DNA from: Onthophagus taurus
Taxonomy: Eukaryota; Arthropoda; Insecta; Coleoptera; Scarabaeidae
Length of the DNA stretch: 64,000 nt
Assembly: GCF_036711975.1 (NCBI RefSeq)
Contig: NC_091976.1
Coordinates: 23,994,001-24,058,000 of the forward strand
Reading direction: 5' to 3'
In this document: piece after piece, positions 3,314 through 49,290 of the stretch
How positions within the stretch are numbered: position 1 is the first letter of the stretch
How the letters are laid out: each line of letters starts with the position of its first letter
Notes under the pieces: model-generated
Database searches by the model: none
The model's input: the letters and a program-made list of their open reading frames with translations, nothing else
Told to the model about the DNA's origin: nothing
Position numbers and translations under genes: made by a program

Positions 3314-6300
3314 TTAACTGGCGGTTTTATTAACATTTTCATTCATTTCACGTTCGTGTGCATTAAGCCAATGAGGTAGTCGGATGGCAAGAAATGTACA
3401 AATGCTCCGAAAGCACCCTTTCATAGAATTATGCTTTGTTATTATTATGTCCATTTCGATCGGATTATCCCGAGCGTTTATTGTTATTGTAAAATCAACG
3501 ATGGGTTGTAATAATGTGATGTTTTTACAAAGTACCTCACAAATATAGTTGGTTACTTGAATTTCCTTTTCTAAATTCGTGGCGTTATTATTTAATTCGA
3601 TATCGCGTCGAATTGCCCTTCTTGATTCCCATAAATTTTGCATTGCTTTGCATCGTAAACTAACCGAATCTAAAACACCTTCTTCTCGTTGAATTTGTTT
3701 ATCGGTGGTTACACTAATGTCACATTTTAATGCTTTTGCTAAAACGTTTATTATAAATTCGTTTACCATGGAGTACCAAACAAATTTGATTTCGTTCGGA
3801 CGATTTTCGCAATTTTCTGGAATCTTTTTCTCTAAATACTTTAAAGATTGCCCCATTATTAATTTAAATTTACATACATTCTCAGTTAATGTAAATCTTT
3901 CGTCGAGAGGTTCCGATGTGAAAAATTTATAAAGGGGTCCTTCTTTGTCGTTTTCTTTTTTATTTTTTTCTTGGAGTGTATTTAACGCGTGTTTACAAAA
4001 AAGTTTGAAATCATCCGCAACACGAGAACTCACAGCTTTAGTTAAATTATGATTGTGTTCGAATGGATCTTGAACGCAAATCGGCGTGTCAACTAAAAGA
4101 GGGAACATATTCACCAAATTTATTTTATAAGTTAAAAAATCATCCGATAAAATATCAGGTCGAAGAAAATCGGTTTTCGGCACAATTTTACCTAAATACG
4201 GACAAACAACGTATAAACTATAATCGAATTGACTATAATATTTAAAAAATCCTTCCAAAAGTTCAAATATTGATTTATTCGAAAGATTTTCATTCGTTAA
4301 ATTCGCAGGTAAAAAACCTCCGTTCCAACCATGTTGAATATTTTCAATCCCCGGCGATTTTTGCATCTCAATAACAGATTCGCAACGAAACGGTTCTTGT
4401 TGTAAATAAAAAATAAACATAATCGTTAACGCGTAATTACTAAATTTACTACTATTCCCATGCAATTCGTGCGAACTCGCCCAATATTTTATAATCATCG
4501 TAACCGTGCGCAATTGTGGAGCTAACGACATATAATATTTAATCAAATAAGTATTACAAACACCCAACATATTCTTGAAATTAAAATCACAACTTAATTG
4601 AGTCGGAACGTGAACGCATTTTACAATCGGCGTTTTCGCTTTCGGTATCGCTAAGACTTGAGCGAAACTTTTCGATTTAGGTAACGCATTTCGTGCCTTT
4701 TTAATAAACGTTTGCGTTGTCGGATCGGAATCTAACATATTCGCAACTTCAACGAAAACATCCACATCGCTGTATTTAAAATTTAAACCAGTTACTGTCG
4801 ATCCAAACGGAAAAATGCGGCAACCCTCTTTAAAAATTTGTTGTAACGTCAATTGAAGGTCCTCGCAAAGTATTTTGTACGATTCGATTTGTTGTTTTTG
4901 ATTCGGTTGTAAATGTTCCATTAATTTATTTATTTGCTCCTCGAATTGTAGATTTTTTAATGATGTGTTTATTAAATCGTGATCTAAATGGGGTTGTTCT
5001 ATATTTGGTTCATCTAAAAGGATTTATTTAATGTTTATGTAACTTAGAAAGTTAAATTCAGTAAGGATTAAAATGGCAGGAATATGGATAAAAGCAAGGA
5101 GAAAATAGGAGAGTTATAAAGATGGGGTCGTGGAATATTACAACTTTAACAAGAAAGGAAAAGGAAATAATGGATGAGATGGAAAGGTTTAGGGATAGAA
5201 ATAATGGGAATTATATTAAGTATAAAATTTTCAAACTATTATAGTCTATACTTTTCGGGAGTCCAAGAAAATACATTGAGCAAGATTTTTATTCAAGTCT
5301 GCAGAAAACCTTCGATAAATCCAGAGAACAAAGAGAGGAAGTATTATAATTATAATGGGAGACTGGAATGCGAGAATAGGTAATGATATACACAAGGGGG
5401 GAGGTAGTATAGGAGAATATGAGGATAAGGGAGCGGCAGTGATGAATAGAAATAGGCAAAGAATGCTGGAATTTTGTCAAATAAACGACTTATTGATTAG
5501 AAACACAATGTGGAGTCAAAGGAGGCAAGATAAATATACGTTTGTGGCGGAAGAAAGGAATGCTAAGAGTATTATTGATTACATGACATACACCCAGAAT
5601 CTCCAAAACAGAGTCGAAGAGGTAAAGACTGAAGCAGAAGCAGAAATGGAAACTAACCACAAACTAGTCATGGCAACTATTAATAATATAGAAATCGAAA
5701 GAGAAGAGATGACAACCTACATGAAAATAACAAGGCAGGAGGAAGAAAAACTAAAATATCAAGAAAAAACAAACAACGAAAATTTAAAAACTAGAAGAAA
5801 CAGAGAATTTAACGCTGGAGGGAAGGTGAAGAATTTTTGAAGAGATAATGCGAAATAAAGCTATGGAAGTTTGTGGAATGAGAAAATATAATAATCAGAC
5901 AAGTCCGACAGGCAATAAAGAAGAAGAAAGAGTCATGGAAGAAATATATAAGAACGAATTCGAAGAGGATAGGACAAACTATAGAACGAACAGAAATGTA
6001 GGTAAGAATATGTTAAGCTGGTAAGTTTGTGTCCTAAACTAAGGTTTTATTTTACTTCAAAAATTTTTCTTTATTTTGTATTCCGTACGTGTACTGATGT
6101 AAAAACATTTTTTTCCAAGATTTTAACTATATTATTGAATTTTTTGATTTTGTTAAATTAATTTTTTGTTTGTAAATTAGTTTGAAAGAAATTTAGATCC
6201 ATTCCTAAACCCCACCTACTAACAAAATATTTTTCCATTATATTGTATAATATTCTAAGTAAGTTCACCTTTTCAAATTCCGATTTCTCCTTACCGTTAT

Positions 6301-9086: not shown

Positions 9087-9759
9087 TTAGCTATGTATAA
9101 TCTTACTTTCTATTATGTTAACAACTTTAAAAAAAAATTCGCTTGATATTAATCCATTTATATCTCCAGGGCTTAATATAACTTTATTTGGTGATAAATA
9201 AAACTTGAATCCAGAATCCAAAGCTTTTTTCAGGTCAATATAAATCAAAATTTCAACATTACCTCGAACACCACTAATACATTTATTTTTATCAATACTT
9301 TCTGTAAAATGAATATGTTCTCTAGTCATTCGGCTTAAACCCTCGCGTTTAATTTTATCCCAATTTCTCAAATACGTTCCATGTATTACATTTTCAACTC
9401 CACAACAATCTGTTATCGGTGTTAAGTCTAATTCTTTAACAACTCCAATTGAGTGCCCCTGATTAGCTTTGATTTTTAACTCTCCACTATCACTTTTTAT
9501 TAATGTAAACCTTTGTTTATTATTATTTTCCACAACTTTTATAATATCATTTACGTTAAACTTTCCTTTTAATTGTTTATACGCCAAAATCTGAGAAACT
9601 GGAACATAACCATCCGAAGATATCGTAAACCCTTCTTTATGGGCACCGTGTCTCAAAATCCATGTTAAAGTTTTACTTAAATACACATCATTTCCCTAAC
9701 GGCAAAATCGAAATTATTAAGATTACAACATCATCTCGAAACTTTACCTTATTGTACAT
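9087..9759 (-). CDS. TRPT1: tRNA 2'-phosphotransferase (Tpt1/KptA family; 2 exons)
   Basis: Model: exon 1 9759-9748 (codes MYNK), a 52-nt intron 9747-9696, exon 2 9695-9087; 206 residues. The splice (AAG|GTAAAG ... TTAG|GGA) is phase 0 and gives a natural start with DVYLSKTLTWILRHGA, the family's N-terminal signature. Conserved elements: Arg19-His20 in LRHGA, DGYVPVSQIL (winged-helix lobe), His109 in VIHGTY, Arg126 in LSRMTREHIHF, and Arg148 in SGVRGNVEILIYID. Together these give the Arg-His-Arg-Arg catalytic set. The enzyme transfers the splice-junction 2'-phosphate of ligated tRNA to NAD+, producing ADP-ribose 1''-2'' cyclic phosphate. At 206 aa it is on the short side for animals (human about 253). 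It shares its strand with TUT1, which starts 67 bp downstream, and it diverges from Aven. Confidence 0.93.
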
Positions 9760-11525: not shown

Positions 11526-14500
11526 ATGGCTGATACGGTATTTCGCGCGAGATCTTTAGGAACCCCCGCTGAAGGAGTTCGCGATCAATACGCCGATGGA
11601 AAAGCCGCGAGAGTTTGGCAAGTTTTTATTGGAGATCAAAAATCTCGTACACAAAATTACAAGAATTTCTTATTAAATTTGTTAAAGAAGAAAGGATGTA
11701 AAAGAATTTTAGATGTTGCGTGTGGAACAGGGTAAATAAATATATATTCATATTTTCATTTAAATAATTACATTTTGAGTAGAATTGATTCGGTTTGGTT
11801 ACTTGAAGAAGGATTTGAAGTGATTTCCGTGGACGCTTCTGATAAAATGTTAAAATATGCTTTACAAACTCGTTGGGCACGAAGAAAGGAAGCGGCTTTT
11901 GACAAATGGAGTAAATTTTATTTAATTAAGTTTGATTTTTTTTTAATATTTTTTTTTTAGTTATTGAGGAAGCAAATTGGTTAACACTTTATGATGACAT
12001 TCGCGAGCATATTGGGGGTGGATTTGATGCCGTGATTTGTTTAGGAAATTCTTTCGCCCACATGATGGATTCTTATGGTGATCAACGCGAACAAAAGTAA
12101 GAAAAACAATTTTAATCTCGATTAATTTAGTGACGTGGATAAAACCAAGAAGTAAACACATTACTGATATTGAAATGATGTAATAAACCGATAAGATAAT
12201 ATTAATTAATAATGTTTCTTTAATTTTCTTTTAGGCAAGCGTTAAAGAATTTCGAAAAATGCGTTAAACCCGGTGGCCTTTTATTAATCGACCATAGAAA
12301 TTACGATTATATCATTAATACGGGAAAAACACCAGCTAAATGTTTATATTACAACGTAATTAAAAATACTTTTGCAATGCTGGTTTTAAATCATTTATTT
12401 TTAGAGCGCACATATGACTGATATTAAAACTTCAGTTTTATTTGAAGCCGGTCGTCCCGCTATGGTTATGATGGATTATTTAATCAACGTTTCTGAACAA
12501 GAAAAAAATAAGCCGATTAATGAAGATGATATAAGGTATATAAAAAGAATTTGTTTTATTTATAAAGTAAAACCTCGATATAACAGATTAATACGGGAAA
12601 GTGACTGTCCAATATCGAACTATATTGTAATATAGAATCTATGAATTCTTCATATTTTCGTATTTTTCTCGATATTTTCGCATCTGGGAGCAAAAGTGAA
12701 AGAGAATAATATTGTTAAGGTTAAAATTTGCTACAACTTTTGTTCTAAAAGTATTTTTGTAATATGCTCCGAATCGCGAATGTTAGTATTACCAACATAT
12801 AAAACTACGAATTCAGCAAATTTTCGTATTTTCGTATTTTTGTTGATATTTTCGCATCTGACAGTAAAAGTGGAAGAGAGCAATATTGCTAAGAGTAAAA
12901 ATAGCTACAACTTTCGTTTCAAAAGAAAATTTGTAATATGCTCCGTTTCCCGAATGCTACCATTAACAACTTGAAAAAGCGACAAATTCATACAATTTTC
13001 CTATTTTTCTCGATATTGACGCATATGAGAGCAAAAGTGAAATAGAGCAATATTGTTAAGGATAAAATTTGCTACAACTTTTGTTCTAAAAGTTTTATTA
13101 TAATATGCTCCGAGTCCCCAGTGCTACCATTACCAACATATAAAACTACGAATTCGTCAATTTTTCATATTTTCGTATTTTTCTCGATATTTTCGCATCT
13201 GAGAGCAAAAGCAAAAGAGAGCAATATTGTTAAGAATAAAATTTGCTACAACTTTTGTTCTAAAAGTTTTTTTGAAATATGATCCGAATCCCCAGTGCTG
13301 TCATTACCAACATAAAAACTACGAATTCAGCAAAATTTCATATTTTCGTATTTTTCTCGCTATTTTCGCATCTGAGAGCAAAAGTGAAAGAGAGCAATAT
13401 TGTTAAGAATAATGTTTGCTACCACTTTTGTGTTGAAAGTTTTTTTGTAACATGCTCAAAATCCGAAGTGTCACCATTAACTTGTAAAACTGCGAAATTC
13501 ATCAAATTCTCATATTTTCGTATTTTTCTCGATATTTTTGCATCTGAGACCAAAAGGGAAAGAGATCAATATTGATAAATATAAAATTTGCTACAACTTT
13601 TGTTTTAAAAGTTTTATTGTATTACGATCCGAATCTCCAGTGCTACCATTAGCAACATATAAAACTACGAATTCGTCAATTTTTCATATTTTCGCATTTT
13701 TCTCGATATTTTTGCATCTGAGAGCAAAAGTAAAAGAGAGCAATATTGTTAAGAATAAAATTTGCTACAACTTTTGTTCTAAAAGTTTTTTTTAAATATG
13801 ATCCGAATCCCCAGTGCTACCATTACCAACATATAAAACTACGAATTCAGCAAATTTTCATATTTTCGTATTTTTCTTGATATTTTCGCATCTGAGAGCA
13901 AAAGTGGAAGAGAGCAATATTGCTAAGAATAAAATTAGCTACAACTTTCGTTTCAAAAGAAAATTTGTAATATGCTCCGTTTCCCGAATACTACCATTAA
14001 CTACTTGAAAAAGCAACAAATTCATCCAATTTTCATATTTTCCTATTTTTCTCGATATTGGCGCATCTGAGAGCAAAAATGAAAGAGAGCAATATTGTTA
14101 AGGTTAAAATTTGCTGTAACTTTTGTTCTAAAAGTTTTATTATAATATGCTCCGAGTCCCCAGTGCTACCATTACCAACATATAAAACTACGAATTCAGC
14201 AAAATTTCATATTTTTGTATTTTTCTTGATATTTTCGCATCTGAGAGCAAAAGCAAAAGAGAGCGATATTGTTAAGAATAAAATTTGCTACAACTTTTGT
14301 TCTAAAAGTTTTTTTGAAATGTGATCCGAATCCCCACCATTACCAACATATAAAACTACGTATTCAGCAAATTTTCATATTTTCGTATTTTTCTTGATAT
14401 TTTCGCATCTGAGAGCAAAAGTGGAAGAGAGCAATATTGCTAAGAATAAAATTAGCTACAACTTTCGTTTCAAAAGAAAATTGGTAATATGCTCCGTTTC

Positions 14501-15006
14501 CCGAATGTTACCATTAACAACTTGAAAAAGCAACAAATTCATCCAATTTTCATATGTTCCTATTTTTCTCGATATTGTCGCATCTGAGAACAAAAGTGAA
14601 AGAGAGCAATATTGTTAAGGATAAAATTTGCTACAACTTTTGTTATAATATGCTGCGAATCCCGAGTTACCATTAACAACATTTTTAAAATTGTCACATT
14701 TTCGTATTTTTCTCAGAACACTTTAGAACTAGAAACCGTACGTTTCTTAAGACTGCTATAGGAAGGCCCACGTTATATCCGTTACATCGAGATTCGTTAT
14801 ATCGAGGTTTTTTTTGTATTTTAAAGAACTTTTTTTTTTGTAGTGAATTTCGTTTATCTTATTATCCCCATCGATTGGAAGTGTTTAAAGCGATGCTATT
14901 GGAGGCTTTTAACAAGAAATGTATTCATAATTTATTCGGAGATTTTAAGAAATTAGAAGAAATCGAAACTCCAAACTTTTATATACACGTCGTTGAAAAA
15001 TTGTAA
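11526..15006 (+). CDS. GNMT: Glycine N-methyltransferase (6 exons)
   Basis: Model: exons 11526-11731, 11783-11910, 11961-12096, 12235-12355, 12405-12535 and 14844-15006; 294 residues, essentially the family length (human 295). All junctions are GT-AG and in frame. Key blocks: [19 protein letters not shown] at the N-terminus, SAM-binding LDVACGTG (62-69), [50 protein letters not shown], and [13 protein letters not shown] in the last exon. GNMT is a cytosolic enzyme that methylates glycine to sarcosine and buffers the SAM/SAH ratio. Exon 2 has a tandem GAGTAG acceptor (NAGNAG): the second AG gives the usual G-I-D-S, the first would insert one Arg. Intron 5 (2.3 kb) carries a transposon with tandem repeats; the other four introns are 49-138 nt. 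Confidence 0.97.
12565..14816. mobile_element. pogo-type non-autonomous element in GNMT intron 5
   Basis: The left end reads AAGTAAAACCTCGATATAAC (12565-12584) and the right end is its complement with a T-run variant (14796-14816). TA dinucleotides flank both (12563-12564, 14817-14818), as expected for Tc1/mariner/pogo TA duplications. The interior is about 12 tandem repeats (12,640-14,690) plus a short fragment of the CTAGAA hairpin (about 14,728-14,755). It has no transposase. The same terminus, next to one repeat unit and a hairpin, recurs at 62.1-62.5 kb. Confidence 0.82.
12640..14690 (+). repeat. ~173-bp tandem repeat, about 12 copies
   Basis: Each unit contains a 'GATATTTTCGCATCTGAGAG' block followed by 'AGAGCAATATTGTTAAGAAT' and 'TTTGCTACAACTTTTGTTCT'. 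The first block recurs near 12,670, 12,847, 13,013, 13,186, 13,360, 13,533, 13,707, 13,880, 14,053, 14,228, 14,396 and 14,567, a spacing close to 173 bp. At least two unit subtypes alternate (one with AAAAGTTTTT, one with CAAAAGAAAATTTG). The open frames across the array are incidental. Confidence 0.93.
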
Positions 15007-15490
15007 AAAGAAGCGATTGTAAATAAGTTATTTTTAATAAAAACAAATTTAACTTGATTTAAAGGTAATTAGTCTTAATTTAGATTTTGAACAGATTTTG
15101 TTTATGGATTCGAACCTAAAATGAAAGTAACACATTGCAAAATTTCTTATAAATATTAATTTCAATTCGAATTTATGTGTTTGTGTGTTTTTACGCAATT
15201 AGAATTGAAAGTAAAAAAAAGGTTTAATTATATTTTGTATATTAATCTTATATTGGTACGTTTTGTGGGGGTCATCGAGAGTGCGGGAGTAGTCCAAAGA
15301 GTTTTATAGTGGGAGACACCTCCGGGTGTACCTGTTCAGTTGCGGGTCCAGCCGCTAAGGCAATCGACATCCGCATCTCGGTTGGTGAGGATCGTTTTCT
15401 CGATCCTCCGCGTTTTAAACCTTTTCCACCTCCTACTCCAACACACTCTACTTCTTCTTCCTTCTTGTATTAGTTGAAGTTTCTTACGCG
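15007..15490 (+). promoter_or_regulatory. GNMT 3' region and upstream/5' UTR of the bHLH gene
   Basis: 15,036-15,041 holds AATAAA for GNMT. From about 15,255 base composition rises, and a pyrimidine-rich leader (CTCC/CTTCTTC runs) leads to the ATG at 15,491. No TATA box was found. The interval is probably promoter plus 5' UTR. Confidence 0.45.
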
Positions 15491-16183
15491 ATGTTGTTCA
15501 ACGACGATCTCACCCACAGACTGTCTTTACCTTTGGACAGTCCAACATACACAACTGATTCAAATAATAACAGCGATTCCGATAAATCTTCGAGAGGTGA
15601 TAAATATTCGTTAAGACCAAGATCATCGAAACGAAGAAATACGATTTCGACCAATTTTGACGAAGACACATTAAAATCTGTTCAAATTGTTGGTAAAAAT
15701 AATAACGTGAAGGTGAAACAAACAAAACCGAAGCAAAAACCGGCACCTTTGAGTAAGTACAGGCGTAAAACGGCAAATGCAAGAGAAAGAAGTCGAATGA
15801 GAGAAATTAATCAAGCTTTTGAAACGTTGAGAAGGGCAGTTCCGCATATTTGTTCATCTCAAAACGGGGCGAATGAAAAATTAACGAAGATAACAACTTT
15901 AAGATTGGCGATGAAATATATTTCTTCGTTGAGTGCAGTGTTAAGTGGTGCGGAGACGACCCAAGACTTGTTTTCGGATTGTTCCGAGTTGGATTGTTTC
16001 TTATTGGAATCAGATGGTGAATCTTTACCTTTACACTCGGATTTTTCTGATCATTCGTTGACCCCGGCCGATTTTTCGGTCGATTTCCCGGACGATTCTT
16101 TAACAACAGCCGATTTCGACCCGGTTTCGCCCGATTTCGGCGATCACATAAATTTCGATCCGTTTTTAGGCGATTTCAGTTAG
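15491..16183 (+). CDS. dei: bHLH transcription factor, delilah-like (single exon)
   Basis: 230 residues, intronless, with no in-frame ATG upstream. Basic region at about 90-103 (YRRKTANARERSRMREIN) with the E-box-contacting NARER pattern; helix-loop-helix at about 104-151 (FETLRRAVPHI ... KLTKITTLRLAMKYISSL). The N-terminal half is Ser/Asn/Lys-rich. The C-terminal ~65 residues are acidic and contain a degenerate F-D/P repeat (DFSDHS, ADFSVDF, ADFDPVSPDF), a likely activation domain. RRKTANARERSRMREIN and the FLLESDGESL block point to delilah/taxi, a tendon and wing-attachment factor in Drosophila. Another Atonal-superfamily member is possible; the bHLH call itself is firm. An AATAAA about 60 nt past the stop (near 16,250) and a second near 16,600 could end the transcript. 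Confidence 0.8.
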   Translation: MLFNDDLTHRLSLPLDSPTYTTDSNNNSDSDKSSRGDKYSLRPRSSKRRNTISTNFDEDTLKSVQIVGKNNNVKVKQTKPKQKPAPLSKYRRKTANARERSRMREINQAFETLRRAVPHICSSQNGANEKLTKITTLRLAMKYISSLSAVLSGAETTQDLFSDCSELDCFLLESDGESLPLHSDFSDHSLTPADFSVDFPDDSLTTADFDPVSPDFGDHINFDPFLGDFS

Positions 16184-17888: not shown

Positions 17889-19735
17889 TTTATTTATATC
17901 AGGTTTGTCATTAACAACCTCATTGTAACAATCCCAATACGATATATAAAATCTCTTGTTGCAGTTTCGCCTAGTTTTCTTCTCTTCGCTTGTAATTCAT
18001 CATCACATTCATTACTAACAGAACTGTCGCTGTTATAACTTTTGATTATTAATTAAAGTATCCTGTTTTTAATGCAAAAACCCGTTTTGAAAAATCAGTT
18101 TCAGTTCTTGAGAAATAAATTTTTGAAATGAACGACAATTTTTTCGAATTTTACAATTTTCGCCGATTAAGTTTTAAAAATTCGTATAAAATCGATTGCT
18201 AGGAATATGAGTATGAAAATTTCCCAAAATGGTAATAAGAGTGTCCTCTTTCCAATGAACCAACCCGTATTGAAAAATAACTTTTAGGTTTTGAGAAAAC
18301 AATATTTGAAGTTTTAATAAAATTTTCGATGTTGCGATTTTCATCGATAATTTACAAAATTCGCTATAAACTTAATTTCTTGAAGGACCCTTGTGGAAAT
18401 ATCACCAATTATTAATTAAAGTATCCTCTTTTTAATGCAAAAAGCCGTTTTGAAAAATCACTTTTTTATTTTGAGAAATAAATTTTTGGAATGATCGACA
18501 ATTTTTTTCGAATTTTGCAATTTTCGCCGATTAAGTTTTAAAAATTCGTTTAAAATCCAATTCTTGGAATATGAGTATGAAAATTTCCCAAAGTGTTAAT
18601 AAGAGTGTCCTCTTTCCAATGAACCAACACGTTTTGAAAACTAACTTTTAGTTTTTGAGAAAACAATATTTAAAGTTTTGCTAAAATTTTCGATGTTGCA
18701 ATTTTCATCGATAACTTTCAAAATTCGCTATAAAATTTATTTCTTGAAGGATCCTAGTGAAAATATCATCAATTATTAATTAAAGTGTCCTCTTTTTAAT
18801 GCAACAAGCCGTTTTGAAAAATCACTGTCAGTTGTTGGGAAATAAAGTTTTGAAGTGATCGACAATTTTTTCGAATTTTGCAATTTTCGCCGATTAAGTT
18901 TTAAAAATTCGTATAAAATCGATTTCTTGAAATATGAGTATGAAAATTTCCCAAAATGGTAATAAGAGTGTCCTCTTTCCAATGAACCAACCCGTATTGA
19001 AAAATAACTTTTAGTTTTTGAGAAAACAATATTTAAAGTTTTGATAAAATTTTCGATGTTGCAATTTTCATCGATAACTTTCAAAATTCGCTATAAAATT
19101 AATTTCTTGAAGGATCCTATTGAAAATATCATCAACTATTAATTAAAGTATCCTGTTTTTAATGCAAAAAGCCGTTTTGAAAAATCACTTTCAGTTCTTG
19201 AGAAATAAATTTTTGAAATGAACGAAAATTTTTTCGATTTTGCAATTTTCGCCGATTAAGTTTTAAAAATTCGTATAAAATCCATTTCTTGGATTATGAG
19301 TATGCAAAAAAAAAGTTAATAAAAGTGTCCTCTTTGCAATGAACCAACTCGTTTTGAAAAATTACTTTTAGTTTTTGAGAAAACAATATTTAAAGTTTTA
19401 ATAAAATTTTCGATATTGCAATTTTCATCGATAACTTTCAAAATTCGCTATAAAATTTATTTCTTTAAGGATCCTTGTGGAAATATCACCAATTATTAAT
19501 TAAAGTAACCTCTTTTTAATGCAAAAAGTCGTTTTGAAAAATCACTTTCAGTTCTTGAGAAATAAATTTTTGAAATGATCACTTTAGAAATGTATCAGAA
19601 ATTATAACCATAATGGCCGGATAGATATTCCGGATAACCGGATATTCGACCGAAGGGGATGCCGAATATCCGGTATTCGGCTTTTCGTAAAATCACATTA
19701 TCATTTGTTAACCTTCAAAGTTGTTGTTAAAGTAA
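17889..19735 (-). mobile_element. hAT-derived fragment with internal minisatellite (copy 1)
   Basis: 17,889-18,040, read on the minus strand, resembles the acidic linker of ZBED-like hAT transposases (SDSSVSNECDDELQAKRRKL). It matches, in opposite orientation, 41,110-41,260 of the second copy. The other end (about 19,590-19,735) contains CCGGATATTCGG-type motifs matched by 39,780-39,900. Between them lies the minisatellite. The transposase is otherwise gone. Confidence 0.7.
18040..19590 (+). repeat. ~360-bp dimeric minisatellite, about 4.3 copies
   Basis: Two related halves of about 180 bp alternate. Half A carries 'GCCGTTTTGAAAAATCACTT' and 'GCCGATTAAGTTTTAAAAAT'; half B carries 'GTGTCCTCTTTCCAATGAAC' and 'TTTTCATCGATAACTTTCAA'. 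The A anchor recurs near 18,091, 18,450, 18,810, 19,170 and 19,530. The same array occurs inverted at 40,036-41,110. Confidence 0.92.
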
Positions 19736-21234: not shown

Positions 21235-21560
21235 TTATTGTTAGTTAGTTCTAGTTTTATTTCAATAAAAAAATACAACAATCTAGTGGTGAATAATAAT
21301 TAAAACTAGAGCTGACAGTAGTACTAGATTAACACTACACCCGAATGTTCCTAGTTCTAGGTCTAGTGTTAGTTCTAGTTTTAGATCAACAAAAATATGC
21401 AACATAGTGATATCTAGTATTACCTAGCACTGTCCCTAGAACTAACTAGAATCATTCGGATTTAGCCGAAATTTTCTTCTTCTAGGTCTAGTATTAGTTC
21501 AAGTTTTAGTTTAATGAAAAATATACGACAATATCAACGTTATTGTATAACCACTAAAAC
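21235..21560. repeat. CTAGAA-type hairpin repeat, degenerate copy
   Basis: Contains GTTAGTTCTAGTTTTA, CCCGAATGTTCCTAGTTCTAG and related arms of the same hairpin unit described at 6.7-7.75 kb, more diverged. Confidence 0.75.
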
Positions 21561-21657
21561 TAGGAGAACTTTCTCTATAATGACAGTTGACTGAGAAGTC
21601 AGAGTTCCTAGTCGATATTTCAGACGGATGCCTTATTCAGGAACTGATCCATTTTGT

Positions 21658-21708
21658 CTTTTGTGTCGGCCCTGATGAGTTTACTGTGATGTTAATGAAA
21701 CACAAGGG
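21658..21708 (+). ncRNA. Hammerhead-ribozyme-like core, unit 1
   Basis: Order of parts matches a hammerhead with open stem III: stem III 5' arm 21658-21666, cleavage triplet G-T-C ending at C17 (21667), CTGATGA (21672-21678), stem II (21679-21696, imperfect), GAAA (21697-21700), stem III 3' arm 21700-21708. Stem III gives nine pairs including two G-U. Stem I is only GGCC between C17 and CTGATGA, so it cannot fold within one copy; it is self-complementary and could form between two copies. Activity is unproven. Confidence 0.5.
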
Positions 21709-21958
21709 TATGCCCGTAAGGACAACCATTAGCGACTACTGGGTTTGACAGTAAAAGTCAGTAAAGCTTAATCTAATCCTAAACCTCATTGTCCAGAACG
21801 AATTGTTTGTCGTGACTGAAAACTCTAGCTTCTGCGGAATTGAGCGTTAAGGAGGACTTTCGTTATAATGACAGTTGACTGAAAAGTTATAGTTCCTCGT
21901 TAATAATTCAGACAGATGTCTTATTCAGGCACTGAACCATTCTGTCAGCAAACACCCA

Positions 21959-22012
21959 AACTTTTCTGTCGGCCTGATGAGTTGACTGTGATGTCAACGA
22001 ACCACAAAGGTA
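21959..22012 (+). ncRNA. Hammerhead-like core, unit 2 (mutated)
   Basis: CTGATGA at 21974-21980 and a perfect 6-bp stem II, but the invariant GAAA has become GAAC (21999-22002), which should inactivate it. Confidence 0.4.
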
Positions 22013-22261
22013 TGCCCGTAAGGACAACCATTAGCGACTACTGAGTATGACTGTAAAAGTCAGTAAAGCTTAATCTAATCCTGAACCTCAGTGTCCAGAA
22101 CGAAGTGTTTGTCGTGACTGAAAAGTCTAGCTTCTGCGGCCTTGAGCGTTAAGAAGGACTTGCCTTATAATGACAGTTGACTGAAAAGTTAGAGTTCCTC
22201 GTCAATATTTCAGACGGATGCCTTATTCAGGCACTGAACCATTCTGTCAGCAAACACCCAA

Positions 22262-22313
22262 ACTTTTCTGTCGGCCTGATGAGTTGACTGTGATGTCAAC
22301 GAAACACAAAGGT
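22262..22313 (+). ncRNA. Hammerhead-like core, unit 3
   Basis: GTC (C17 at 22272), CTGATGA (22276-22282), a perfect stem II GTTGAC/GTCAAC, GAAA (22301-22304), and a stem III of nine pairs out of ten with one C-C mismatch. Only GGC separates C17 from the CTGATGA box, so stem I is effectively absent. Confidence 0.45.
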
Positions 22314-22563
22314 ATGCCCGTAAGGACAACCATTAGCGACTACTGAGTATGACTGTAAAAGTCAGTAAAGCTTAATCTAATCCTGAACCTCAGTGTCCAG
22401 AACGAAGTGTTTGTCGTGACTGAAAAGTCTAACTTCTGCGGCCTTGAGCGTTAAGAAGGACTTGCCTTATAATGACAGTTGACTGACAAGTTAGAGTTCC
22501 TCGTCAATATTTCAGACGGATGCCTTATTCAGGCACTGAACCATTCTGTCAGCAAACACCCAA

Positions 22564-22615
22564 ACTTTTCTGTCGGTCTGATGAGTTGACTGTGATGTCA
22601 ACGAAACACAAAGGT
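22564..22615 (+). ncRNA. Hammerhead-like core, unit 4
   Basis: As unit 3, with CTGATGA at 22578-22584 and GAAA at 22603-22606. The GGC linker is GGT here. Confidence 0.45.
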
Positions 22616-22864
22616 ATGCCCGTAAGGACAACCATTAGCGACTACTGAGTATGACTGTAAAAGTCAGTAAAGCTTAATCTAATCCTGAACCTCAGTGTCC
22701 AGAAGGAAGTGTTTGTCGTGACTGAAAAGTCTAGCTTCTGCGGCCTTGAGCGTTAAGAAGGACTTGCCTTATAATGTCAGTTGACTGAAAAGTTAGAGTT
22801 AGACCATTCTGTCAGCAAACACCCAAACATTTTTTTCAGGGTTGCCTACAGGCCTTTCTGACCT

Positions 22865-39774: not shown

Positions 39775-41270
39775 GGATGGTGATTTTGCGAAAAGCCGGA
39801 TACCGGATATTCGGCATCCCCTTCGGCCGAATATCCACTTATCCGGTATATCTATCCACCCATTATGGTTATAATATCTGGTGCATTTAATAAGTGATAC
39901 CCTACATTACCACATTATTGCGATATTTGAATAAAAATGAAATTAAGAAGAAAGGTGATAAGATATGTCAACTTGTTTAGATCCAAGGTACAAAATGAAC
40001 TTTTTTGATGCTGATTTAACTAACGAAGTAACTCTAAAAAGAGGATACTTTATTTAATAATTGGCGATATTTTTACAAGGATCCTTCAAGAAATGAATTT
40101 TATAGCGAATTTTACAAGTTATCGATGAAAATTGCAACATCGAAAATGTTATCAAAACTTCAAATATTGTTTTGTCAAAAACTAAAAGTTATTTTTCAAA
40201 ACGGGTAGGTTCATTGGAAAGAGGACACTCTTATTAACACTTTGGGAAATTTTCATACTCATATTCCAAGAATTGGATTTTATACGAATTTTAAAAACTT
40301 AATCAGCGAAAATTGCAAAATTCGAAAAAATTGTCGATCATTTCAAAAATTTATTTCTCAAGAACTGAAAGTGATTTTTCAAAACGCCTTTTTGCAATAA
40401 AAAGAGGATACTTTAATTAATAATTGGCGATATTTTCACAAGGATCCTTCAAGAAATGAATTTTATAGCGAATTTTACAAGTTATCGATGAAAATTGCAA
40501 CATCGAAAATTTTATCAAAACTTCAAATATTGTTTTCTCAAAAACTAAAAGTTATTTTTCAAAACGGGTAGGTTCATTGGAAAGAGGACACTTCTATTAA
40601 CACTTTGTGAACTCTTTTCAAACTCATACTCCAAGAAATCGATTTTATACGAATTATTAAACTTTATTGGGCGAAAATTGCAAAATTCGAAAAACTTCTC
40701 TTTCATTTCAAAAATTTATTTCTCAAGAACTGAAAGTGATTTTTCAAAACGCCTTTTTGCATTAAAAAGAGTATACTTTAATTAATAATTGGCGATATTT
40801 CCACAAGGATCCTTCAAGACGTGAATTTTATAGCGAATTTTACAAGTTATCGATGAAAATTGCAACATCGAAAATTTTATCAAAACTTCAAATATTGTTT
40901 TCTCAAAAACTAAAAGTTATTTTTCAAAACGGGTAGGTTCATTGGAAAGAGGACACTTCTATTAACACTTTGTGAAACTTTCAAACTCATATTCCAAGAA
41001 ATCGATTTTATACGAATTATTAAACTTTGTAGGGCGAAAATTGCAAAATTCGAAAAACTTCTCTTTCATTTCAAAAATCTATTTCTCAAGAACTGAAAGT
41101 GATTTTTCAGATCAAAACAATTAATATCATCGAAAGTAATAACAGCGATAGTTCTGTTAGTAATGGTTGTGAAACTACAACAAGAGATTTTATATATCGT
41201 ATTGGGATTGTTACAATGAGGTTGCTAATGACAAACCTGATATAATTTGTAAAAGGTTCTTAGTTGTTGT
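39775..41270 (+). mobile_element. hAT remnant with internal minisatellite (copy 2)
   Basis: The left end has CCGGATATTCGG-type sequence. At 39,965-40,036 the frame reads STCLDPRYKMNFFDADLTNE, the LDPRYK motif of ZBED-like hAT transposases. The coding sequence is then interrupted by the ~360-bp dimeric minisatellite (40,036-41,110, inverted relative to copy 1) and resumes as NNSDSSVSNGCETTTRDF, the acidic linker that normally follows. Both copies carry the minisatellite next to the same linker, so it was in the element before it spread. Confidence 0.78.
40036..41110 (-). repeat. ~360-bp dimeric minisatellite, about 3 copies
   Basis: Reverse complement of the array at 18,040-19,590, with the same A/B half-unit order. 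Unit-to-unit divergence is similar in both arrays. Confidence 0.92.
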
Positions 41271-44919: not shown

Positions 44920-46330
44920 CAATGGGTTAGGTTGGGTTGATTTAGCAGCTCCATGCTAGATATCATCGTTTGTGGGAATCCGAATGTAAAAAAGCTTATT
45001 CCTGCGTCTTTAGTCTCACTTTAGAGATCAATATCTGCCTAACCGTTCGATGAAAAAAATTGCGATATAATTTGATGTAATCACTGAACATTTCTACGTA
45101 ACATATGTGAATTTGAAAACATTCGGCTTCACGGTATTATTTTTACCGCTAGTTAAATGAAAAATGTACCAGATATGGTGTGTGTTCCAGACTGGACGTC
45201 GCGCCTTTATTTTTTTTATGTGGGTAAAATACGCTGTTAGAAGACGATTTGCTCTCTAAAAATTAAGAAATTTTACAACATTTTTCTATTTACTAATAAT
45301 GGGAAAGGATTTTAGGTTGATGTGAGGAAGATCTCTTGATAGGAAGATAATAGATGTGATCTAAGACTACTCTCTTTATAATCTACACCTGTTAGATGAT
45401 ATTAGATGAGAATTATCGGAACTTATCGGAAAACGAATTCGCGTTCGACCGAGAAAGTCGTGAAAAATGTTTAATAGTCTTTTTTTAGTTTTTTAGTCTT
45501 TTTTTAGTTTAATTTTAGACACTTCTTGCATTAAAGCAACCGGAACAATTAGATCAAGTCTGCATTCCTCGAGGTTGCCAATGCATTCTAAAGAGTATAA
45601 CATCAAGAATTGATTCTCAATGGGTTAGGTTGGATTGATTTAGCAGCTCCATGCTAGATAAAGAATTTTATTTCTGCATTTAAGCCTCACTTTACAGATC
45701 GATATCTGCGCAACCACTCGTTGAAAAAAATTGTGGTAAAGTTTGCTGTAATCACTGAACTTTTCTACGTAACATATGTCAACTTGAAAGTTTTCGGCTT
45801 CGCGGTATTCTTTTTATCGCGAGTTAAATGAAAATCGTACCAGATTTGTGAGGGTGCGAACTTAATCCCCTTTGCGATTTTTTTTCTCAAAAACTATTTG
45901 ACGACAAACTTTCAATTTTGAACAGGTTGTAGCCTGATATGTTCTTAATGAGGGGTATATTTTATTTTTTCGATATTCCATATAGTTTTGCAGATAATTG
46001 CGAATTCGTAGGTTGAAAACGGTTGGGCTCTAATTTGTTTAGATTTAAACGAATTATACATTAAAAAAAAACAGAAACTAGCCGTGCGGCGTGAGAGGGG
46101 TTCCGTCCAATCAGAAATGATTGTGCTGGTGTATGTTCTAGACTGGACGTCGCGCCTTTATTTTTTTTGTGGGTAAAATAAAGGTGATACGCTATTAGAA
46201 GACTATTTGCTCTGTAAAAATCAAGAAATTTTACAACATCCTTCTATTACTAATAGTGGGAAAGAATGTATGGAAGTTTTGCTGATGGGGAAATAATAGA
46301 TGTGATCAGGAAAAGAAGTGTTAAAGAGAC
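44920..46330 (+). repeat. Left flank modules of the satellite block (direct repeats)
   Basis: CTCAATGGGTTAGGTTGG... (44,920) returns at 45,615; GTTCTAGACTGGACGTCGCG... (about 45,185) returns at 46,135 and again at 49,100 beyond the satellite; TTATACATTAAAAA...CCGTGCGG (about 46,050) returns at 49,020. So the satellite is bracketed by, and partly duplicated with, modules of one larger element. Confidence 0.8.
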
Positions 46331-48960
46331 GGTTTTTCAAAATATCGTCTAGTTTTTGAGATACTAATGATTAAACATGATCTCACTTTTCTGAATAAAC
46401 AACTATTGTCTATCATTTTCAAAATATTGTAATAAATTGTTTAATTATTATGATTTAATGATTTATGAAATTAAAAGCACTTGTTGAACAAATCATAACC
46501 TTTCCAATAAAAGAAACGGATTTTCAAAATATTGTCTAGTTTTTGAGATATTAATGTTTAAATATGATCTCACTTTTCTGGATAAACAATTATTGTCTAC
46601 TATTTTCAAAAAATCGTAATAAATTGTAGGTTTAATGAATTCTTATGAAATTATCAGCACTTGTTGTACAAATTATAAGCTTTCTAATAAAAGAGACGGA
46701 TTTTCAAAATATTGTCTATTTCTTGAGATATTAATTTGTAACATGATCTCATTTCTCTAGATAAATAATTATTTTCAAAAGATCGTAATAAATTGTAGGT
46801 TTAATGAATTCTTATGTAAATATCAGCACTTGTTGAACAAATCATAAGGTTTCTAATAAAAGAGACGGATTTTCAAAATATTGTCTATTTCTTGAGATAT
46901 TAAGTTTTAACATGATCTCACTTTTCTGGATAAATAATTATTTTCAAAAGATCGTAATAAATTGTAGGTTTAATGAATTCTTATGTAAATATCAGCATTT
47001 GTTGAACAAATCATAAGCTTTCCAATGAAAGAAACGGATTTTCAAAATATTGTCTAGTTTTTGAGATATTAATGTTTAAATATGATCTCACTTTTCTGGA
47101 TAAACAATTATTGTCTATTATTTTCAAGAAATCGTAATAAATTGTAGGTTTAATGAATTCTTATGAAATTATCAGCACTTGTTGAACAAATCATAAGGTT
47201 TCTAATAAAAGAGACGGATTTTCAAAATATTGTCTATTTCTTGAGATATTAATTTGTAACATGATCTCATTTCTCTAGATAAATAATTATTTTCAAAAGG
47301 TCGTAATAAATTGTAGGTTTAATGAATTCTTATGTAAATATCAGCATTTGTTGAACAAATCATAAGCTTTCCAATGAAAGAAACGGATTTTCAAAATATT
47401 GTCTAGTTTTTGAGATATTAATGTTTAAATATGATCTCACTTTGCTGGATAAACAATTATTGTCTATTATTTTCAAGAAATCGTAATAAATTGTAGGTTT
47501 AATGAATTCTTATGAAATTATCAGCACTTGTTGTACAATTTATAAGCTTTCTAATAAAAGAGACGGATTTTCAAAATATTGTCTATTTCTTGAGATATTA
47601 ATTTGTAACATGATCTCATTTCTCTAGATAAATAATTATTTTCAAAAGATCGTAATAAATTGTAGGTTTAATGAATTCTTATGTAAATATCAGCACTTGT
47701 TGAACAAATCATAAGGTTTCTAATAAAAGAGACGGATTTTCAAAATATTGTCTATTTCTTGAGATATTAAGTTTTAACATGATCTCACTTTTCTGGATAA
47801 ATAATTATTTTCAAAAGATCGTAATAAATTGTAGGTTTAATGAATTCTTATGTAAATATCAGCACTTGTTGAACAAATCATAAGCTTTCCAATGAAAGAA
47901 ACGAATTTTCAAAATATTGTCTAGTTTTTGAGATATTAATGTTTAAATATGATCTCACTTTTCTGGATAAACAATTATTGTCTATTATTTTCAAGAAATC
48001 GTAATAAATTATTGTAGGTTTAATGAATTCTTATGAAATTATCAGCACTTGTTGTACAAATTATAAGCTTTCTAATAAAAGAGACGGATTTTCAAAATAT
48101 TGTCTATTTCTTGAGATATTAATTTGTAACATGATCTTATTTCTCTAGATAAATAATTATTTTCAAAAGATCGTAATAAATTGTTGGTTTAATGAATTCT
48201 TATGTAAATATCAGAACTTGTTGAACAAATCATAAGCTTTCCAATGAAAGAAACGGATTTTCAAAATATTGTCTAGTTTTTGAGATATTAATGTTTAAAT
48301 ATGATCTCACTTTGCTGGATAAACAATTATTGTCTATTATTTTCAAGAAATCGTAATAAATTGTAGGTTTAATGAATTCTTATGAAATTATCAGCACTTG
48401 TTGTACAGCAATTTATAAGCTTTCTAATAAAAGAGACGGATTTTCAAAATATTGTCTATTTCTTGAGATATTAATTTTTAACATGATCTCACTTTTCTAG
48501 ATAAATAATTATTTTCAAAAGATCGTAATAAATTGTAGGTTTAATGAATTCTTATGTAAGTATCAGCACTTGTTGAACAAATCATAAGCTTTCCAATGAA
48601 AGAAACGGATTTTCAAAATAGTGTCTAGTTTTTGAGGTATTAATGTTTAAATATGATCTCACTTTGCTGGATAAACAATTATTGACTATTATTTTCAAAA
48701 AATCGTAATAAATTGTAGGTTTAATGAATTCTTATGAAATTATCAGCACTTGTTGTACAATTTATAAGCTTTCTAATAAAAGAGACGGATTTTCAAAATA
48801 TTGTCTATTTCTTGAGATATTAATTTTTAACATGATCTCACTTTTCTTGATAAATAATTATTTTCAAAAGATCGTAATAAATTGTAGGTTTAATGAATTC
48901 TTATGTAAATATCAGCACTTGTTGAACAAATCATAAGGTTTCCAATGAAAGAAGCGGATT
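46330..48960 (+). repeat. ~170/179-bp dimeric satellite, about 15 monomers
   Basis: The anchor AGACGGATTTTCAAAATATTG recurs near 46,331, 46,505, 46,692, 46,862, 47,033, 47,212, 47,382, 47,561, 47,731, 47,900, 48,079, 48,249, 48,434, 48,604 and 48,784. Two subtypes (one with TCTATTTCTTGAGATATTAA, ~170 bp; one with TCTAGTTTTTGAGATATTAA, ~179 bp) mostly alternate, giving a ~349-bp higher-order repeat with occasional doublets of the first type. Copies are highly alike. Confidence 0.93.
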
Positions 48961-49290
48961 TTGAAAATATCTTGTAGTTATTGATGCGGTTATGTTGAAA
49001 ATCGCTGGGCTCTAACGAATTATACATTAAAAAGTAACAGAAATTAACCGTGCGGGTTAGAGGGGTTCCGCCCAAACGGAAATGATGGTGCTGGTGTACG
49101 TTCTAGACTGGACGTCGCGCCTTTATTTTGTTATGTAGGTAAAATAAAGGTGGTACGCTGTTAGAACACGATTTGCTCTTTAAAAATCCAAAAATTTTAC
49201 AACATCCTTCTATTTACTAATAGTGGGAAAGGATTTTGGGTTGAGGTGAGGAAGATAATAGAAGTGATCAGGGAGCACCCCTTTGTAATC
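48961..49290 (+). repeat. Right flank module of the satellite block
   Basis: Repeats the 46,050-46,320 module (GGACGTCGCGCCTTTATTTT and AATAGTGGGAAAGGATT), closing the block. Confidence 0.8.

What the first reader, a model, noticed from the sequence alone, without database searches (positions are those of the whole stretch)
21570..22850. Tandem repeat whose units carry hammerhead-ribozyme-like cores
Seen: four of the five 302-bp units contain, in order, GTC, CTGATGA, a stem II hairpin, GAAA (GAAC in unit 2), and arms that pair as stem III (nine pairs in unit 1; nine of ten in unit 3). Bases differ between units 1 and 3 in ways that mostly keep pairing (A or G opposite U). Known: hammerheads occur in satellite DNAs and retrozyme-like RNAs of animals. 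Odd: stem I is just GGCC or GGC, so one copy cannot fold a normal three-way junction. The GGCC of unit 1 is self-complementary, which suggests pairing between two copies (a double hammerhead) or loss of stem I.
Basis: partly seen in the sequence, partly recalled or inferred. Interest (0 to 1): 0.85.

Follow-up and report, generated by a model that had tools for sequence, protein, structure and literature searches.

The report
Tandem repeat with stem-less hammerhead ribozyme
A small tandem repeat in an animal genome (probably an insect) belongs to a scattered repeat family carrying a hammerhead self-cutting RNA motif that lacks one of its three arms, so it may be able to cut only when two copies pair up.

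Summary
Four tandem hammerhead-like cores lie in units 1-4 (21562-22755). The same genome has relatives with a scoring core at 21 other loci, many much more divergent. Across them stems II and III change sequence but stay paired: 8 of 15 pairs have two-sided changes in 13 sequences, 10 of 15 in 29, with 0 of 500 shuffles reaching this. Rfam's type III hammerhead model finds 2 of 9 relatives tried, far below threshold, with stem I deleted. This is a genuine hammerhead descendant.

The tiny stem I is not a local loss. Of 27 alignment rows showing the spot, 24 have exactly four bases, 13 of them GGCC; only window units 2-4 have three. Best reading: a retrozyme-like retroposon whose type III hammerhead has a loopless, palindromic helix I, so a full hammerhead forms only between two copies sharing helix I. 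Mobility is supported by a recurrent 5' end and one target-site duplication. The dimer step is inferred and the folding evidence is mixed: exact dimer in 2 of 11 cores. The window array itself looks decayed and is probably inactive.

The parts
21562..22832 (+). tandem array: units 1-4 plus a fifth fragment
21562..21849 (+). unit 1 (288 bp)
21850..22151 (+). unit 2 (302 bp)
22152..22453 (+). unit 3 (302 bp)
22454..22755 (+). unit 4 (302 bp)
22756..22832 (+). fragment of a fifth unit, no hammerhead core
   Evidence: and sequence
21658..21708 (+). hammerhead domain, unit 1: III' 21658-21666, C17 21667, stem I GGCC 21668-21671, CUGAUGA 21672-21678, stem II 21679-21684/21691-21696 (one U.U mismatch), GAA 21697-21699, III 21700-21708
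   Evidence: model R1 77.0 bits (unit is in the model's training set)
21961..22010 (+). hammerhead domain, unit 2: stem I GGC 21971-21973; GAAC and C.C defects
   Evidence: R1 79.5 bits (training set)
22263..22312 (+). hammerhead domain, unit 3: stem I GGC 22273-22275, perfect 6-bp stem II, stem III 8 of 9
   Evidence: R1 83.9 bits (training set)
22565..22614 (+). hammerhead domain, unit 4: stem I GGU 22575-22577
   Evidence: R1 83.0 bits (training set)

Best explanation
The array is one copy of a dispersed, retrozyme-like, non-coding retroposon family. Each unit (about 220-325 bp) carries a type III hammerhead whose stem I is reduced to four bases, ancestrally GGCC, with no loop. One copy alone can form stems II and III but not helix I. 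In a transcript of two or more units, or between two RNAs, the self-complementary GGCC of one copy pairs with that of another; the III' arm of each then pairs with the III arm of the other. This gives two complete hammerhead cores sharing one 4-bp helix I, each cutting after GUC to release unit-length RNA that can be circularised and reverse transcribed. Monomers would then be stable, and only multimers would cut. Shown here: the conserved core order, covarying stems II and III, the near-constant four-base spacer, dispersal, a recurrent 5' end and one target-site duplication. Inferred: cleavage, dimerisation, circularisation and the reverse transcriptase used. The window array is a decayed member (three-base stem I in units 2-4, C.C in stem III of units 2-4, GAAC in unit 2, U.U in unit 1). 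My odds: hammerhead descent 0.93, mobile retroposon 0.75, obligate dimer through helix I 0.45, window copy inactive 0.8.
For: Stems II and III: 87.7% of cells paired, 8 of 15 pairs with two-sided changes, covariation score 0.303; 0 of 500 shuffles reach any of these three; slid controls give at most 48.2% paired and 2 such pairs. On 29 matches, 10 of 15 pairs, 0 of 500 (that alignment is fitted to the structure). Several different stem II sequences are each complementary (L015, L029, L042, L156, L164). An unconstrained circular consensus fold of 14 whole units also finds stem II and the inner part of stem III. Rfam RF00008 (type III) aligns the L015 and L038 cores with the loop of stem I absent. 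Spacer: 24 of 27 rows have four bases, 13 GGCC, 17 of 24 self-complementary if G.U is allowed. GGCC ranks 1-3 of 256 tetranucleotides for between-strand helix I pairing in 6 of the 7 GGCC cores tried. Unconstrained co-folding gives the exact double hammerhead for L009b and L011. Mobility: starts at the same unit position with flanks unlike a unit end in 9 of 25 loci, one 11-13 bp target-site duplication at L050, arrays of about one to four units.
Against: No cleavage or RNA data. The exact dimer appears in only 2 of 11 cores, 2 of 7 with GGCC; pairing probabilities for w1, L015a, L015b, L045 and L144 are about 0.10 or less, and L144 ranks 15 of 256. In full-length tandem folds the double hammerhead lies 15-24 kcal/mol above the MFE, and is about equal to two single stem-III forms in L015 and L009 but 7-8 kcal/mol worse in the window pairs. 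7 of 24 four-base spacers are not self-complementary, and two otherwise well-formed cores have GGCG (L029) and GGCA (L164). One shuffle measure (further pair types) does not support structure: 343 of 500, 17 of 500. Two cores sharing only 4 bp may clash, because stems I and II pack side by side in active hammerheads; no 3D modelling was done. The observed recurrent 5' and 3' ends do not coincide with the predicted cut site.
Confidence: 0.5

Rival explanations
1. A hammerhead relic without catalysis: the family descends from an ordinary type III hammerhead element whose stem I was deleted in a common ancestor, and copies spread by retroposition without needing cleavage.
For: No monomer can form three stems. 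Most copies have core or stem defects. The recurrent ends of insertions do not fall at the cut site. Ordinary-looking type III hammerheads exist in some insects (passages of PMC7936874).
Against: Stems II and III keep covarying between subfamilies that all already have the four-base spacer, which is not expected after loss of function in their common ancestor.
Confidence: 0.27
2. A monomer-active hammerhead variant: with stems II and III stacked, the four-base GGCC bridges the junction (perhaps a single G-C pair) and supports slow cutting without a true helix I.
For: Spacer length is nearly constant at four in decayed and intact copies alike. Cores with GGCG and GGCA keep good stems II.
Against: A helix I is part of every hammerhead described in the passages I saw. 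Conserved GGCC sequence is not explained by a mere bridge.
Confidence: 0.13
3. GGCC pairs elsewhere in the same unit, for instance with the second GGCC near the unit end, as a switch or an architectural contact rather than helix I.
For: The unit end often carries a GGCC box (for example TGCGGCCTTGAGCG): 9 of the 44 loose pattern matches have it; many of the others are a different, AACC-type site.
Against: A third strand pairing the spacer would put C17 and C3 at opposite ends of one helix, which is not a hammerhead junction. No covariation was tested between the two boxes.
Confidence: 0.06
4. Chance resemblance in a satellite repeat.
For: No Rfam hammerhead hit in the window and no unusual local folding energy.
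Against: 8 genome matches against 0 for the reversed control; covariation; about 0.01 descriptor hits per shuffled window against 2 observed.
Confidence: 0.03

Closest known systems
Metazoan non-LTR retrozymes (passages of PMC7229834)
   Same: Short tandem arrays of units around 300 bp, low G+C, dispersed, no LTR; target-site duplications longer than 4 bp when present; hammerhead in each unit.
   Different: Those carry type I hammerheads; here the strand order is type III and stem I is a loopless quartet.
Double hammerheads of newt satellite RNA and avocado sunblotch viroid, and palindromic stem III dimers in animal repeats (passages of PMC6155905, PMC6466107, PMC3088659)
   Same: A hammerhead too weak alone that becomes complete as a dimer through a short palindromic stem.
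   Different: Those merge stem III; here the shared stem would be stem I.
Double hammerhead proposed for Dolichopoda cave cricket pDo500 satellite (passages of PMC2837043)
   Same: Insect satellite; stem I would form between two sequences.
   Different: There stems I and II are intermolecular and stem III is local, and a single-hammerhead fold with its own stem I also exists.
Type III hammerheads in termite and dipteran genomes and in HDV-like RNAs (passages of PMC7936874)
   Same: Type III order in insect DNA.
   Different: They have longer than usual helices I and II; here helix I is almost absent.
Penelope-like element minimal type I hammerheads (passages of PMC7761336)
   Same: A stem reduced to almost nothing; dimers proposed.
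   Different: Type I, with helix III reduced. The same genome has such motifs (L016-L027, L160-L163), a near mirror image of this family.
Non-circularly permuted hammerheads (PMC10085705: first of eight parts, section 13 and passages)
   Same: Hammerhead cores in unusual connectivity.
   Different: Order here is the ordinary S-C-G of type III.

Membership tests
Hammerhead ribozyme | Conserved core CUGANGA ... GAAA with UH cut site | tested here: met
   Window units 1, 3, 4 complete; unit 2 has GAAC. Relatives vary, many with core changes.
Hammerhead ribozyme | Stems II and III formed and covarying | tested here: met
   the further-pair-types measure is not supportive (343/500, 17/500).
Hammerhead ribozyme | Stem I: a helix joining cut site and CUGANGA | tested here: not met
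   Three or four bases only in all 27 informative rows; no helix possible within one copy. A two-copy helix is possible but unproven.
Hammerhead ribozyme | Rfam clan CL00010 score above gathering | tested here: not met
   None in the window; RF00008 25.6 and 22.5 bits in L015 and L038 against 48.5; the other 7 family loci tried gave none.
Hammerhead ribozyme | Self-cleavage after UH | not testable with these tools
   Needs in vitro transcription or RNA data.
Type III hammerhead | 5'-to-3' order cut-site strand, CUGANGA strand, GAAA strand | tested here: met
Metazoan non-LTR retrozyme | Short tandem units (about 150-450 bp), low G+C | tested here: met
   14 units cut out, 218-325 bp, G+C 0.386-0.451, 13 of 14 below 0.45.
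Metazoan non-LTR retrozyme | Type I hammerhead | tested here: not met
   Order is type III.
Metazoan non-LTR retrozyme | Target-site duplications longer than 4 bp | tested here: inconclusive
   One clear case, L050, of 24 loci compared; long matches at L011, L048 and L156 are explained by local or unit repeats.
Metazoan non-LTR retrozyme | Expressed as small circular RNA | not testable with these tools
   No RNA data held.
Stem III double hammerhead | Short palindromic stem III shared by two copies | tested here: not met
   Stem III here spans up to 9 pairs that can close within one copy.

The most novel reading that the evidence does not exclude
A natural hammerhead that works only as a dimer through a loopless palindromic helix I: the mirror image of the stem III double hammerheads, evolved in a type III retrozyme-like family of an animal, so that multimers cut and monomer circles are spared. 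The same genome also carries Penelope-like type I motifs with a loopless stem III.
Probability: 0.4. Interest if true: 0.78.

Novelty: new variant of a known kind. Interest (0 to 1): 0.62.

Why it matters
If true, animal retrozymes are not confined to type I hammerheads, and evolution has found at least two ways (stem III and stem I) to make cutting depend on having two copies. It would give a testable case of how small RNA elements keep their circles intact while cutting their multimers. It also shows that models expecting a stem I hairpin, such as Rfam's, can miss such families.

Tried and rejected
Chance or simple satellite: rejected by covariation and genome counts. Loss of stem I in this array only: rejected, since no examined relative has more. 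Non-circular permutation: rejected, order is normal. The GTCGTGC-CTGATGA family found by the first pattern search (508 matches, 132 in controls, only the first places listed) looked at first like the same thing with stem I GUGC; flanks show a type I layout with loopless ACAUGU stem III and GCAC downstream, 3' of Penelope-like reverse transcriptase or GIY-YIG frames in two of the four loci looked at more widely, so it was set aside. Rfam did not hit those tried either. Viral contigs: 66 stretches with the exact 15-mer TGTCGGCCCTGATGA; with model R1 the best scored 23.3 bits, E 0.0037 (L071), against 65-87 bits for 14 of the 29 cores; not followed further. Full-length folding to test the dimer: inconclusive. 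Searching the whole genome by covariance model was not possible.

Rows dropped: in the spacer count, 2 of 29 rows (L009:1120-1178 and L070) lack the spot. In one search, 7 of 27 sources gave no core (L012, L039, L049, L140, L141, L150, L152). In the 5'-end count L029 and L049 were left out because their upstream flanks resemble a unit end (10 and 12 of 14; 376 of 400 random flanks lie at 6-9 or 377 at 6-10 less extremes, see the table), and L014 because it is ambiguous. The regular-expression count was too loose (54 matches, many spurious; missed L042) and is not used for the spacer figures.

Full report
What is there. The window lies in a 291-Mb genome in 33 contigs; I take it for an insect from its gene and repeat content, which was not tested. 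At 21562-22832 there is a tandem array: unit 1 of 288 bp, units 2-4 of 302 bp and a fragment of a fifth. Each of units 1-4 holds, on the + strand, a stem III 5' arm, GUC, three or four bases, CUGAUGA, a stem II hairpin, GAA(A/C) and the stem III 3' arm. Stem II is 6 bp (with one U.U mismatch in unit 1); stem III has 9 of 9 pairs in unit 1 and 8 of 9 in units 3 and 4.

Is it more than chance? In the window alone the case is suggestive: 2 descriptor hits against 44 in 4410 shuffled windows, no Rfam hammerhead hit, and no unusual local stability. The relatives decide it. A search of the own genome with one unit gave 17 matches, 5 of them in the array itself and the rest dispersed; further queries extended the family. 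A covariance model from 13 domains, four from the window and nine from relatives, matched 29 cores in the window and 19 other loci, out of 27 sources tried, and two more loci later. Stems II and III covary: 8 of 15 pairs with changes on both sides in the 13 and 10 of 15 in the 29, with 0 of 500 shuffles as high for percentage paired, pairs and cells with two-sided changes, and covariation score. The measure 'further pair types' does not stand out (343 and 17 of 500 shuffles reach it). Some stem II sequences differ wholly while staying complementary: GUUGAC/GUCAAC in the window, GUCGG/CCGAU in L015, GCUCGUA/UACGAGC in L029, CUUGCA/UGCAAG in L164. Rfam's RF00008 aligns the L015 and L038 cores with stem I's loop absent (25.6 and 22.5 bits, gathering 48.5); the other seven family loci in that call gave no hammerhead hit.

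Stem I. In the 29-row alignment, 27 rows show the spacer between GUC and CUGAUGA. Three, all in the window, have three bases; 24 have four. Of these 13 are GGCC, 3 GGCT, 1 GGTC, 2 AGCC, and one each GGCG, AACC, GACT, GGAC and GACC. Outside that alignment I saw GGCA (L164), GGCT (L165), AGCC (L012 and a second unit of L050) and GGCC (a second unit of L053). Seventeen of 24 are self-complementary if G.U is allowed. Several departures are what CpG decay at C17-G1.1 would give (GTT-GG, GTC-AG); that is my inference. So the four-base GGCC is most likely ancestral in the family and the three-base form of window units 2-4 a local, later loss. Rows are not independent: L055 gives three, L015, L009 and L045 two each.

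Mechanism. One copy cannot form helix I. Two copies can: GGCC of A with GGCC of B, III' of A with III of B, III' of B with III of A, stems II local. In a tandem transcript this is fully nested. Evidence is mixed. Among all 256 quartets GGCC ranks 1, 1, 1, 2, 3, 3 and 15 in the seven GGCC cores, but the absolute probability is high only in two (0.95, 0.91). In tandem folds the enforced double hammerhead is about equal to two single stem-III forms in L015 (-120.5 against -121.9 kcal/mol) and L009 (-170.9 against -171.5), 7-8 kcal/mol worse in the window pairs, and always above the MFE by 15-24. These energies contain no tertiary terms. I hold the dimer mechanism at about 0.45.

Mobility. Units are 218-325 bp with G+C 0.386-0.451 in the 14 I cut out, in arrays of about one to four. 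Of 25 loci examined by eye (24 and L164), 9 start within a few bases of the same unit position with upstream flank unlike a unit end (window, L009, L015, L048, L050, L053, L067, L144, L164). The unit origin was chosen from the window copy and several of these loci were used to cut units, so this is not fully independent. At L050 the insertion is flanked by CCTTCATCTTC. Three loci (L050, L053, L055) end at the same model position, in GGCCCTGAT, inside the core. Neither recurrent end is the predicted cut site, so the reverse-transcribed RNA was not simply the cut monomer. This fits a non-LTR retroposon; the animal retrozyme literature expects Penelope or LINE machinery (passages of PMC7229834), and Penelope-like reverse transcriptase and GIY-YIG frames are present in this genome.

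Comparison with what is known. Animal retrozymes carry type I hammerheads (passages). Known double hammerheads share stem III; the cricket pDo500 proposal has stems I and II between molecules. Type III hammerheads are known in some insect genomes, with long helices I. In six paper searches and the passages I read I saw no hammerhead with a loopless palindromic stem I; papers outside this library, and most of the listed ones, were not read. By the membership test this fails one defining feature of a hammerhead (stem I in the unit) and one of a metazoan retrozyme (type I). It looks like, and may have worked like, both.

The window copy. Three-base stem I in units 2-4, C.C in their stem III, GAAC in unit 2 and U.U in unit 1 suggest that this array is inactive. 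The interest lies in the family, of which the L015 array (two units, GGCC in both, complete cores, 93% alike) looks a suitable one to test.

Noticed in passing
L016-L027, L160-L163 (and many of the matches): A second hammerhead-like family: GUGC-CUGAUGA-stem II-GAAACAUGUA-GCAC, type I layout with loopless palindromic stem III, 3' of a Penelope-like reverse transcriptase frame (L161) or a GIY-YIG frame (L162). Rfam gives no hammerhead hit at the loci tried.
   Followed up: partly
L050 1626, L053 1323, L055 1211: Three insertions end at the same position, GGCCCTGAT, nine bases past the predicted cut; unexplained.
   Followed up: partly
window 21240-21560; L009 and L011 flanks: Copies sit inside or next to CTAGTTCTAG-type interspersed repeats.
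   Followed up: no
units, e.g. window 21860-21865 with 22032-22037: Long-range complementarity UCGCUA (UCGUUA in unit 2) with UAGCGA near the middle of the unit, and GACTGAAAAGTC-type hairpins, suggest a highly structured unit RNA.
   Followed up: partly
window 12644-14648, 18045-19580, 40035-41109, 46323-48984: A+T-rich tandem arrays with periods of about 170-180 and 349-365 bp.
   Followed up: no
window 3314-5023 (-), 9087-9695 (-), 15419-16183 (+): Likely host genes by Pfam: MTPAP-like poly(A) polymerase, Tpt1/KptA RNA 2'-phosphotransferase, bHLH factor.
   Followed up: no
G000:C2:17952250-17953050 (L164): A very divergent subfamily with another stem II and spacer GGCA, unit of about 325 bp.
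   Followed up: partly
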